A program made the position numbers and the translations under genes. Below the pieces are notes generated by a model. The model worked only from the letters and a program-made list of their open reading frames with translations. It was not told the DNA's origin and did no database searches. From assembly GCA_003994795.1 (NCBI GenBank), contig AP018269.1, positions 6,041,687 through 6,105,686 of the forward strand: DNA of 64,000 nt. The letters run 5' to 3'. Source of the DNA: Cylindrospermum sp. NIES-4074. GTDB taxonomy: Bacteria > Cyanobacteriota > Cyanobacteriia > Cyanobacteriales > Nostocaceae. Of the stretch, positions 18,780-22,587 are shown piece by piece. Numbering within the stretch: position 1 is the stretch's first letter; each line of letters begins with the position of its first letter.

Positions 18780-19253
18780 TCAATTATGATTTCCCCAAAT
18801 GGGCGCTTGAATAATTGCTAAGGCATCCAAACTAAAAATCATCTGCTCAGAAATATTAATAAAATAACCCTGCAAAAAAGGTGTCATTGCTGGGTAGAAT
18901 AATTCAGCAGATGGGAGTTTTATTTGCTCGGTGTCTAGCCACTCAATATCTATCAGTTGTCGTACTAACAGTCCTAAATATTTACCCTCGCTTTCTAGCA
19001 CAATTGCCATCATTCTTGAGAGGAAATTTGACCCTTGTAAAAGTGGTGGATAACCTAGCATCTCCTCTAAATCAACCAACCACAGCATTTCGCCACGCCA
19101 ACTATAGATACCCAATACACAATTAGGCATCTGCGGAACACCACATATTTCTCCCAATGATACTTGCAAAACTTCTGTGATGTGCTGTAACGAAATTACT
19201 GCTGTATCTCTTGTACCCAAATTAAAGCTCAAAAATTTTTGCTTGGTGTCCAA
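18780..19253 (-). CDS. pixI: CheW-like coupling protein (PixI)
   Basis: This is a 157-residue single-domain CheW protein that would couple the PixJ receptor to the PixL kinase. The CheW fold pattern is visible, with ISLQHITEVLQV (about residues 20-31), VLGIYSWRGEMLWLVDLEEMLG (split across about 46-67) and LGLLVRQLIDIEWL in the second half. The likely start is TTG; no ATG is close upstream. It lies 105 bases upstream of pixJ and 127 bases downstream of pixH on the same strand. Confidence 0.87.
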   Translation of the reverse strand: MDTKQKFLSFNLGTRDTAVISLQHITEVLQVSLGEICGVPQMPNCVLGIYSWRGEMLWLVDLEEMLGYPPLLQGSNFLSRMMAIVLESEGKYLGLLVRQLIDIEWLDTEQIKLPSAELFYPAMTPFLQGYFINISEQMIFSLDALAIIQAPIWGNHN

Positions 19254-19380
19254 AGTTATTTACCCTTTCTTTACCCTGATTTTTTCATTTTTAGTCACTA
19301 TTTGCAGCTACCATATAACAACTAATAGTTAATTATAAATAGTGACTATTTTGGCACATCCAAATTCATTAGCTATTTAT

Positions 19381-19743
19381 CTAATTGAGTAATCGCCTCA
19401 ATGTAACTTCTAATTCTTCTTGATCAATTGGTTTTGATAAATAAGCTTCAGCGCCCAACATATTGCCCCAAATTTTATCTACTTCGCTATTTTTTGTAGA
19501 GCAGAAAACTACAGGTATGTTGCTAGTGTTGGGGTTATTTTTTAGTTCTCGGCAAATTTCAAAGCCGCTTTTACCAGGTAAAAGTACGTCGAGAAAGATC
19601 ACATCGGGCTTGGCTATGTCTATTTTATCCTGCGCCTCTTCACTACTAGTAGCACCGATCACAGCATAACCTGCCTGTTGCAAATAACGTCTAAGTATTT
19701 CCATATCAGTCAAGCCATCTTCAACAACTAAAACCGTACTCAT
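19381..19743 (-). CDS. pixH: CheY-like response regulator (PixH)
   Basis: This is a 120-residue stand-alone receiver domain. The acidic pair (VVEDGLTD), the phospho-acceptor Asp in VIFLDVLLPGKSG (about residue 52) and the conserved Lys in YLSKPID are present. No output domain exists, as in CheY. In this operon it would receive phosphate from PixL and act on the type IV pilus machinery; that target is inferred from the Synechocystis Pix system. Confidence 0.9.
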   Translation of the reverse strand: MSTVLVVEDGLTDMEILRRYLQQAGYAVIGATSSEEAQDKIDIAKPDVIFLDVLLPGKSGFEICRELKNNPNTSNIPVVFCSTKNSEVDKIWGNMLGAEAYLSKPIDQEELEVTLRRLLN

Positions 19744-20036
19744 GGCAATTACCTGTAAAATTTCTGTCAGCAGGAAAACAAAAACTGAAACTTAAAATCA
19801 TAATCAGATAAATGCTAGTCTTTGTTTTATCTAACTATGATACATTATTTATTAATTTACCTCAGAAATACTACTTAATCAACATAAGTTCACATACGTT
19901 ACTCAGGTTACAAAAGCAAAGTTTGCTAAAGACATTTTCTGTTATCAGTATGTCTCAGCAACAGCTTAATATTAAGGGATGAAATATTGGGCGTTTATTT
20001 AACTAACTCGTAACTAATTACTCAGAACAAATTTTC

Positions 20037-21290
20037 CTATTGACAAACCTCCAAATTACCTATGCTTTTAACTGTTGAGGGAGGCTTTTCTATATTAGTT
20101 ACGCGCCTAACTGTTTGAGTAGCTTGTGTTGGTAAATATTTACGCACTACTGCCATGACCCGTTCGGCCACTACCGGTTTGGTGAGAAAATCTGTAGAAC
20201 CCACTACCTTGGCGCGGACTCTATCTAAAAGACCATCACTACCCGTTAAGATAATCACAGGCGTGTTAGCAAAAGCAGAAATCCGTCGCAACTGAGTACA
20301 AATTTCGTAACCGCTGGCGACAGGCATAATCAAATCTAAGAAAATTAAGTCTGGTTTATCTTGAATCAGAGTTGGTAGAGCTTGCACTGCATCTTGAATC
20401 TTCATAAACCTCAGTCCATTGGCAGTGATAATCTCCTCTAACATTTTACAAACTAAAGGACTATCATCCACACAGGCTACTAGTGGAGCATTCAGCTTAT
20501 TTGGTTGTGTGGTGGTAGTGTTACTTTCAGCTTCAGCAACTGCTAATGGCAAGTCTGGTACTTCCACCAGTTCAATAATGCCTTTAAGAATATAAGGAAG
20601 TAATGAACGAGCAACTGGCAATACATTTTGCTTCATTTTGACTGCTAAATCTCGCAGCGTGTATTTGCCATCGATGAGGTTTACAAAGTTTTTATATACG
20701 GACGGACTCACCATTTGCTGGAGTTGTTCTGGTCTCCGTAGCACTGGTGCTAAGTCAGGAGAGAAACTAGCTAAACCCACTTCTGACCAAATTTTCCACG
20801 AGTCCAGCATATACTTCATAGATGCATCTGAACTCGTGAAACTCATTGGTGTTTCTAGAAGAACTACTGGGTGACGCTGGCAACTGATTGAGGCAAAATT
20901 TGCCTGTTGAGCTAAGTCAAATAATAGTTCTGCTATTGTTTGTTCCACAATAACGTTAATTTGTTCCCGGTTAATCTTCTGTCTTTTATACAGAATTTCT
21001 AAAATATGGTAATCCCAATAATTTATTGATAAATCTTCCATGCGAAACCGCATTTTATCTAAATCAATTTGGGGACAATTTAGCGCCATCTGTCTACGCC
21101 AACGCCGGAAGGGGTGAGTTCCTCCAGTCGCCCAAACTATGCGTCCGAGCCGATAGTAGAAAGTCCATTGGTGTCCCTTAGAACTCTGAATATTTAAATT
21201 GCCATTGTATTGGAGTTGAGTACAGGTTTTAAACTCATTAAGTAAATTATTAGATTCTATCAGTTCTGGATGGGTCATATTTTGTACCAT
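20037..21290 (-). CDS. pixG: PatA-like response regulator (PATAN domain plus receiver, PixG)
   Basis: This is a 417-residue protein with an N-terminal PATAN/DUF4388-type region (GHQWTFYYRLGRIVWATGG, about residues 40-58). A helical middle follows, then a C-terminal CheY-like receiver (VACVDDSPLVCKML, LIFLDLIMPVASGYE with the phospho-Asp, and TKPV). This arrangement is that of PatA, HmpA, PixG and related regulators of heterocyst patterning, hormogonia and phototaxis in cyanobacteria. It is the first gene of the pix operon, in the same order as pixGHIJL of Synechocystis. An ATG at 21290 is the start. Confidence 0.88.
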   Translation of the reverse strand: MVQNMTHPELIESNNLLNEFKTCTQLQYNGNLNIQSSKGHQWTFYYRLGRIVWATGGTHPFRRWRRQMALNCPQIDLDKMRFRMEDLSINYWDYHILEILYKRQKINREQINVIVEQTIAELLFDLAQQANFASISCQRHPVVLLETPMSFTSSDASMKYMLDSWKIWSEVGLASFSPDLAPVLRRPEQLQQMVSPSVYKNFVNLIDGKYTLRDLAVKMKQNVLPVARSLLPYILKGIIELVEVPDLPLAVAEAESNTTTTQPNKLNAPLVACVDDSPLVCKMLEEIITANGLRFMKIQDAVQALPTLIQDKPDLIFLDLIMPVASGYEICTQLRRISAFANTPVIILTGSDGLLDRVRAKVVGSTDFLTKPVVAERVMAVVRKYLPTQATQTVRRVTNIEKPPSTVKSIGNLEVCQ

Positions 21291-21960: not shown

Positions 21961-22148
21961 TGAGCAAAGCGAGATAAAAATGGCGTTGGCGCAGCCTACC
22001 GTAGGTAATCGCGCAGCCAACGCCATCTTGCAGATTTACAATAGGAGTTATCCGGCAAAAATCAAGCAGCGATGCTCGCAGACTTAGAAGTTATGGCAGT
22101 TGCCCATTCTTGGGTACAAAAGTACTATACTAGAATGGAGGCTAACAA

Positions 22149-22351
22149 ATGCGTGTTGCCCAATTATGGGATGAAGTATAGCAGAAACGCTCATTTGGAT
22201 AGTTAAAGGCTATGGGGCTGATTTAAAGATTTCCGATGCCTGGACTGTGCTTCAATACCTCCATTGGGAAGTATTACCTGCTCCCATTGTCTCCGAAATC
22301 TCAGCACTTCATCTCGATTCATTACCAAAAAGCGATAATCGAGGTAGGTAG
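22149..22351 (+). pseudogene. Probable frameshifted short gene upstream of the PatX-like peptide
   Basis: From the ATG at 22149 one frame reads MRVAQLWDEV and then stops. A second frame takes over from about 22180 and reads AETLIWIVKGYGADLKISDA and then AWTVLQYLHWEVLPAP to the TAG at 22349-22351. The second frame has protein-like composition and no internal stop. One frameshift near 22178 would give a single 67-residue product. No family is recognised, so the call rests only on coding appearance. Confidence 0.35.
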
Positions 22352-22422
22352 AGAAGCGATCGCAGTTCCGTCGAAAGAAATAGGCGATCGCCCCTAATTA
22401 ACCCCTAGCCAAGGAATCAATT

Positions 22423-22587
22423 ATGAAAATCTTAGCGTTAGTAGTGCTACTAGGGATTGCGGTGGCTGCCCCCTCATGTGCTCAAAAACTTGATCATTCA
22501 GGCAAAATCAAAATAGGAAGACCAGATCAACCACGTCAACCTTACCGGGGTGGGGGAAGACGAGAACTTTACCGTATCCCTTATTAG
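22423..22587 (+). CDS. patX: PatX-like secreted peptide with RGGGR motif (candidate heterocyst pattern signal)
   Basis: A 54-residue ORF has AAGGA seven bases before its ATG. The first 20 residues form a signal peptide (hydrophobic LALVVLLGIAVAA, then PSCAQ). The short mature part is basic and Gln/Pro-rich and ends with PYRGGGRRELYRIPY. PatX proteins of heterocystous cyanobacteria are small exported peptides with a C-terminal RG(S/T)GR motif, often followed by REL, that inhibit the master regulator HetR, as do PatS and HetN. This ORF matches in length, signal peptide, motif position and the following REL. The third motif residue is Gly instead of Ser/Thr. It could be a functional variant, a weakened signal, or a coincidental small secreted protein. 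The layout makes coincidence less likely. Confidence 0.65.
   Translation: MKILALVVLLGIAVAAPSCAQKLDHSGKIKIGRPDQPRQPYRGGGRRELYRIPY

What the first reader, a model, noticed from the sequence alone, without database searches (positions are those of the whole stretch)
22423..22587. PatX-like heterocyst-pattern peptide with an unusual RGGGR motif
The sequence shows a 54-residue ORF with a ribosome-binding site, a signal peptide, a short basic mature part and RGGGRREL near its C-terminus. PatX, PatS and HetN carry RG(S/T)GR-type pentapeptides that bind HetR; PatX is known as a small exported protein with this layout. Gly in place of Ser/Thr would be a natural variant of a well-studied signal, altering affinity or exportability. 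Such a short gene is easily missed. A decayed gene and a membrane-protein gene of unknown role flank it.
Basis: partly seen in the sequence, partly recalled or inferred. Interest (0 to 1): 0.78.

Follow-up and report, generated by a model that had tools for sequence, protein, structure and literature searches.

The report
Second PatX-like peptide in Cylindrospermum
This is a real, tiny, probably exported peptide gene in a nitrogen-fixing cyanobacterium that resembles the cell-pattern signal PatX but has glycine in place of the usual serine, and it exists alongside a normal PatX gene.

Summary
The 54-codon ORF at 22423-22587 is real. Orthologues with intact RGGGRR occur in both other sampled genomes of the genus (one is Cylindrospermum sp. 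FACHB-282) and in 0 of 189 other sampled family genomes. Both ends of the peptide are under purifying selection. It is not the genome's PatX: a canonical patX with HRGSGR lies 39 kb from hetR and has the DIF1 promoter box. The window gene scores 9.8 bits against a PatX cut-off of 30 and has no DIF1 box in three species. Its linker and tail still resemble PatX beyond the motif. Gly at the centre is a natural variant: genome G037 has a DIF1-driven patX with RGGGR, and in another genus one PatX locus carries G, S or E. HetR's peptide-contacting residues are unchanged. Most likely it is a PatX-like paralogue, exported and processed, that binds HetR more weakly and is made outside the heterocyst programme. 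Binding, export and expression were not tested. The main rival is a convergent RGGGRR tail.

The parts
22423..22587 (+). 54-aa PatX-like peptide gene with RGGGR
   Evidence: orthologues in 3 of 3 genus genomes, purifying selection at both ends
22423..22482 (+). codons 1-20, probable Sec signal peptide (cleavage after A20 inferred)
   Evidence: hydrophobic by eye, conserved in 3 species; no predictor run
22546..22560 (+). RGGGR motif
   Evidence: invariant in 3 species
22411..22415 (+). Shine-Dalgarno-like AAGGA
   Evidence: conserved in 3 species
22200..22422 (+). upstream block conserved among the three genomes of the genus; no TCCGGA (DIF1)
22352..22475 (+). copy of a dispersed ~125-nt element overlapping leader and signal-peptide codons

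Best explanation
The gene encodes a genus-restricted, PatX-like paralogue. Shown: a conserved 54-aa ORF with a selected motif, a PatX-like mature part, no heterocyst-type DIF1 box, and unchanged peptide-contact residues in the HetR of the same genomes. Inferred: Sec export, trimming of the tail by a periplasmic peptidase (as PatP does for PatX), and release of a (Y)RGGGR-containing peptide that reaches neighbouring cells. The peptide would bind the HetR hood through the two Arg side chains and main-chain contacts. It would lack the Ser side-chain hydrogen bond to Glu253, and so be a weaker HetR inhibitor than RGSGR. Because it lacks DIF1, it is probably made outside the early heterocyst programme and would act as a background brake rather than as the spacing signal.
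For: Orthologues with RGGGRR in 3 of 3 genus genomes; selection on signal part and tail. Against an HMM of 42 canonical PatX proteins the three score 16.4, 21.1 and 15.6 bits; shuffling linker and tail while keeping residues 1-21 and RGGGRR gives means of 6.1, 8.6 and 7.0, reaching the real score in 2, 1 and 14 of 500 (3 of the 42 had been fetched because the three-sequence model hit them, a small bias). With a model of the three, canonical patX is the second-best place in the own genome (E 0.021). RGGGR occurs in a PatX over the model cut-off with DIF1 at -63 (G037). One PatX-type locus in 10 genomes of another genus has G in 8, S in 1, E in 1. HetR R223, E253, E254, D256, D270 and D278 are identical in 3 HetRs of the genus and 10 of genus g107. 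PMC4649674 (passages): PatS6 binds by four main-chain hydrogen bonds plus Arg contacts to Glu253, Asp270', Asp278', and Ser to Glu253. PMC12756182 (outline, section 14, passages): PatX export and PatP processing.
Against: The PatX model scores it at 9.8 bits (E 1.3) and the two orthologues at 17.4 and 16.6, cut-off 30. No DIF1 in 600 nt upstream in 3 of 3 species, while 40 of 44 canonical patX loci read have it. Other exported-looking peptides with RGGGRR flanked by Cys (G111, G071, G163) are not PatX-like. In G001 a place with an internal stop and no RGxGR outranks canonical patX with the three-sequence model (0.021 v 0.090), so that model's scores for patX are at noise level there. No expression, export or binding data.
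Confidence: 0.5

Rival explanations
1. An exported small basic peptide of another family whose Gly/Arg-rich tail resembles PatX by convergence; it does not act on HetR.
For: Cys-flanked RGGGRR peptides exist in genera g22 (CTYRGGGRREDC) and g27 (CRGGGRRDGC), without DIF1 in the upstream read; the g22 pair starts MKILAV, the window peptide MKILAL. The PatX cut-off is not met.
Against: Similarity to PatX extends into linker and tail. The Cys-type peptides score lower against canonical PatX (11.6, 9.3, 7.1 bits) than the three orthologues (15.6-21.1).
Confidence: 0.33
2. A PatX paralogue that has lost its HetR function, or a decoy on the way to decay.
For: Gly removes the Ser-Glu253 contact (PMC4649674); no DIF1; different neighbours in the window genome and in the other two.
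Against: dN far below dS in the motif part (0.12 v 0.82; 0.03 v 0.52 between the closer pair) and intact frames in 3 of 3.
Confidence: 0.12
3. A spurious ORF lying over a conserved non-coding element.
For: The leader and first ~18 codons are a copy of an element found with broken frames in 8 of 57 non-genus relatives.
Against: The element ends near codon 18, yet codons 19-54 are conserved with protein-type substitutions in the tail and no indels.
Confidence: 0.05

Closest known systems
PatX (NCBIfam NF047413, heterocyst-inhibiting protein PatX)
   Same: Short exported-type layout, PxQPxxP-rich linker, RGxGRR(E/D) a few residues from the C-terminus; RGGGR also found in one DIF1-driven patX (G037).
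   Different: Below the family cut-off (9.8-17.4 of 30 bits), different N-terminus, no DIF1, far from hetR, genus-restricted in the sample, and present in addition to a canonical patX.
PatS and HetN (RGSGR HetR inhibitors; from papers only)
   Same: RGxGR-type motif.
   Different: The motif is C-terminal in PatS and internal in HetN, a putative ketoacyl reductase (PMC7761841, PMC4649674); both are thought to be cleaved in the cytoplasm (PMC12756182). Neither was searched for here.
Second PatX-like peptide of genus g45 (G046, G147)
   Same: Similar N-terminus and length (three-sequence model matches positions 1-48, E 0.0027, best non-genus hit), tail DHRGSGRR(N/D), no DIF1 (L065 in 450 nt; L277 in at most 200 nt).
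   Different: Ser centre; NF047413 20.3 bits. The relation to the window gene is suggestive only, since one such E-value is expected among 388 genomes.

Membership tests
PatX (NF047413) | Score over the curated cut-off of 30 bits | tested here: not met
   9.8 (window), 17.4 (G001), 16.6 (G002) bits
PatX (NF047413) | RG(S/T)GR pentapeptide | tested here: not met
   RGGGR in 3 of 3 orthologues; but a PatX over the cut-off in G037 also has RGGGR
PatX (NF047413) | Linker and tail similarity beyond the motif | tested here: met
   real scores reached by 2, 1 and 14 of 500 shuffles
PatX (NF047413) | DIF1 (TCCGGA) box about 63 nt before the start | tested here: not met
   0 of 3 orthologues within 600 nt v 40 of 44 canonical loci read
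PatX (NF047413) | N-terminal Sec signal, no other membrane segment | tested here: inconclusive
   by eye only; no predictor on hand
PatX (NF047413) | Processing by PatP to a hexapeptide | not testable with these tools
   experimental in PCC 7120 (PMC12756182); patP not searched in this genome
PatX (NF047413) | Inhibits heterocysts and binds HetR | not testable with these tools
   HetR contact residues unchanged make it possible

The most novel reading that the evidence does not exclude
PatX peptides have diversified at the centre of RGxGR (S, G, N, D, E) into a set of signals of graded or separate specificity. In Cylindrospermum the Gly form, made in all cells rather than under DIF1, is a constant weak HetR brake that lets only filament-end cells, which receive inhibitor from one side and leak it, become heterocysts. 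It would then explain the genus's terminal-only heterocysts.
Probability: 0.1. Interest if true: 0.85.

Novelty: new variant of a known kind. Interest (0 to 1): 0.57.

Why it matters
[quoted passage not shown] PMC12756182, section 14, does list genomes with hetR and no patX found). Finding Gly, Asn, Asp and Glu centres in PatX-type genes, some with a DIF1 box, gives natural mutants of a morphogen whose receptor complex is solved. It makes the role of the Ser-Glu253 contact directly testable. A genus-specific extra member in a genus with terminal-only heterocysts offers a candidate for an old patterning question.

Tried and rejected
Own genome's PatX: rejected, since a canonical patX exists elsewhere. 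DIF1 regulation: no box found for the window gene. An NtcA-type GTAN8TAC site (recalled) within 600 nt: none found in the three species. LexA-like box GGTACAAAAGTACT at 22113-22126 (consensus recalled): exact in the window only, not in the other two species; not pursued. Upstream open stretch as a known gene: no family. Rfam for the leader element: three matches in five loci, all far below their gathering scores. Structure of the leader element: 17 consensus pairs, none with changes on both sides; z -0.87 for the window copy, -0.73 for G016, and -2.8 to -5.0 for the other five of seven; not decided. Plasmid spread: no match by DNA or protein. Adjacency to the DUF4388-receiver gene (20037-21290) as functional: not kept, since in G001 and G002 the gene lies beside a transaldolase-like gene (name from recall) instead. 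The strict RGGGR pattern hit 16 of 388 order genomes (6 for the reversed control): 2 of this genus, 3 of g107, and 11 set aside as short frames of about 23-46 codons without a signal (eight f8 genomes, G413, G426, G497). RGDGRR, RGGGRR or other centres in longer proteins or very short frames (G010, G061, G083, G091, G103, G129 and others): set aside. In one search, 18 of 60 genomes matched the upstream DNA; 3 are of the genus, 8 have the long match, and 7 (G004, G013, G026, G029, G033, G195, G205) have only 23-35 nt and were set aside.

Papers: PMC7761841 abstract, introduction and first part of the discussion; PMC12756182 outline, section 14 and passages; PMC4649674, PMC7476756, PMC9410556, PMC3566145 and PMC9523125 passages only; others seen as listings. 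Elhai and Khudyakov 2018 is not held and is known only through citing papers. A search for RGGGR with HetR gave 0 papers; RGDGR, RGNGR and RGEGR occurred 0 times in the 19 papers listed. Absence from print beyond this library was not tested.

Full report
What is there. The ORF at 22423-22587 encodes 54 residues with RGGGRREL near the end, an AAGGA seven bases before the start and a hydrophobic N-terminus. It is the only RG.GR in six frames of the window. A protein search found it in all 3 genomes held for the genus and in 0 of the 189 others among 192 sampled from the family. The genus is named from L064: contig NZ_JACJRJ010000007.1 of Cylindrospermum sp. FACHB-282, 162,899 bases, the same length as G001:C81. 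The three products have the same length and share an invariant YRGGGRR. Substitution rates show constraint on the signal part and the tail and little on the linker. In G001 and G002 the gene lies beside the same transaldolase-like gene (name recalled); in the window it lies between a DUF4388-receiver gene and an unclassified 134-aa ORF, so it, or its neighbours, have moved.

It is not the genome's PatX. The own genome has a PatX at 98.1 bits (G000:C1:4047447-4047644) whose tail is PHRGSGRREL. The hetR match lies 39 kb from it, at 4008476. The window gene is about 2 Mb away. In 60 relatives, 42 have a PatX over the cut-off; all 30 loci fetched there have Ser at the centre. Of 46 canonical loci given, two were duplicates; of the 44 left, 43 have Ser and one (G037) Gly, and 40 have DIF1 (TCCGGA) 30-100 nt before the start. 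The four without are L029, L030, L032 and L169, the last with only 194 nt available. The window gene and its two orthologues have no TCCGGA in 600 nt. By NF047413 they score 9.8, 17.4 and 16.6 of a required 30 bits.

It is PatX-like beyond the motif. An HMM of 42 canonical sequences scores the three at 16.4, 21.1 and 15.6 bits. With residues 1-21 and RGGGRR held fixed and the rest shuffled, 2, 1 and 14 of 500 shuffles reach the real value. Three of the 42 (L169-L171) had come in through the three-sequence model, which leans the test slightly towards likeness. Read side by side, RPNQPEKPVPHRGSGRREL (own PatX) and RPDQPRQPYRGGGRREL (window) are close. A model of the three sequences, run on 388 order genomes, finds the own canonical patX as its second place in the own genome (E 0.021). 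In G001 a place with an internal stop and no RGxGR ranks above patX, and at the loose limit used 303 of 388 genomes have some match, so these E-values alone prove nothing. Its best non-genus hit is a 62-aa peptide in G046 (E 0.0027, positions 1-48) ending DHRGSGRRNNNIVRNY. G147 of the same genus has the same kind of peptide with DHRGSGRRD. An E-value of this size is expected about once among 388 genomes, so this is a lead; NF047413 scores that peptide 20.3 bits.

Gly at the centre is a natural PatX variant. A DNA pattern for RG(N/K/S/R/D/E/G)G(R/S)(R/S)(D/E) matched 111 of 192 family genomes. I read the 30 loci made by that search, 20 further stretches with non-Ser centres and 20 more, nearly all with Ser centres; some listed places with other centres were not fetched. 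G037 of genus g36 has MRTSLSLL...EPESPTPYRGGGRRDLIQSKNARSNG, 67.9 bits against NF047413, with TCCGGA at -63. This is an ordinary patX with RGGGR. Whether G037 has another patX was not tested. In ten genomes of genus g107 (another family of the order), each with one HetR match, one PatX-type locus has RGGGR in 8, RGSGR in 1 (G325) and RGEGR in 1 (G264); it had no DIF1 in 450 nt in the four copies checked. In 6 of those 10 a further small protein with RGDGRR lies beside the HRGSGR one; in G264, G325 and G419 none was seen in the fetched stretch, and in G504 that locus was not found. RGNGR occurs in G212 (DIF1 at -61), G238 and G101 (no DIF1 in 322 and 450 nt), and RGSGR plus RGEGR together in G033 (DIF1 at -63). 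So the centre varies more than RG(S/T)GR.

How it most likely works. The HetR residues that contact PatS6 in the crystal (Glu253, Glu254, Asp256, Asp270, Asp278) and Arg223 are identical in the three HetRs of the genus and the ten of g107 (numbering by the ungapped 299-residue alignment). The PDB chain 4ynl matches the hood domain; its link to PMC4649674 is inferred. PMC4649674 (passages) says that four hydrogen bonds are main-chain, the two Arg bond to Glu253, Asp270' and Asp278', and Ser bonds to Glu253. A Gly centre keeps all but the last, so binding should be weaker, not lost (inference). Asp or Glu would face Glu253, so those forms may not bind in the same way (inference). PMC12756182 (outline, section 14 and passages) reports PatX export and cleavage by PatP in PCC 7120; that the window peptide follows the same path is inference. 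PMC7476756 (passages) reports that HRGTGR blocks the HetR-HetL interaction.

Possible biology. PMC3566145 (passages) states that Cylindrospermum makes heterocysts only at trichome ends. PMC9410556 (passages, abstract among them) proposes that leakage at the ends is enough to explain terminal heterocysts in a patA mutant. A brake made in all cells would favour ends. The link to this gene rests on one genus and is speculative.

An odd leader. The 70 nt before the start have a long match in 8 of 57 non-genus relatives (G034, G017, G027, G012, G003, G016, G032, G021; the last two in part). In most of these the likeness continues to about codon 18, but frames there are broken, and the neighbours differ except that G012 and G027 share theirs; none matches the neighbours in the window, G001 or G002 (seven loci). 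The parts conserved are two GCGATCGC sites and the pair GCCA(C)AGGAATC / GATTGCAGTGGC. No compensatory changes support a fold, and single-sequence folds beat shuffles in five of seven copies but not in the window's or G016's. Either the peptide gene arose over a dispersed element that supplied leader and signal part, or the other genera keep relics of it. I cannot tell.

Limits. No signal-peptide predictor, expression data or binding data were available.

Noticed in passing
window 22352-22475; L227-L232, L235, L237: Dispersed ~125-nt element (two GCGATCGC sites plus an imperfect inverted repeat) overlapping the leader and signal codons; one long match per genome, in mostly different surroundings, in 8 of 57 non-genus relatives.
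   Followed up: partly
L125-L130 (genus g107): A small protein with RGDGRR near its end lies beside the HRGSGR PatX in 6 of 10 genomes; in L134 TCCGGA is at -60.
   Followed up: partly
L190 (G033): One DIF1-bearing PatX carries both RGSGR and RGEGR.
   Followed up: no
L154 (G031), L158 (G024): Longer proteins that look like HEAT-repeat proteins (recall, no search) end in RGSGRRT or HRGDGRR; possible further RGxGR tails on other proteins.
   Followed up: no
L168 (G211): A PatX-like protein (28.2 bits, just under the cut-off) with three RGSGR repeats.
   Followed up: no
L250 (G111), L264 (G071), L255 (G163): Small exported-looking peptides with RGGGRR flanked by cysteines (CTYRGGGRREDC, CRGGGRRDGC).
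   Followed up: partly
window 18780-21290 (-): CheW-like, receiver, and DUF4388-receiver (PatA-like by recall) genes in a row, about 1.1 kb from the peptide gene; not adjacent in the two congeners.
   Followed up: partly
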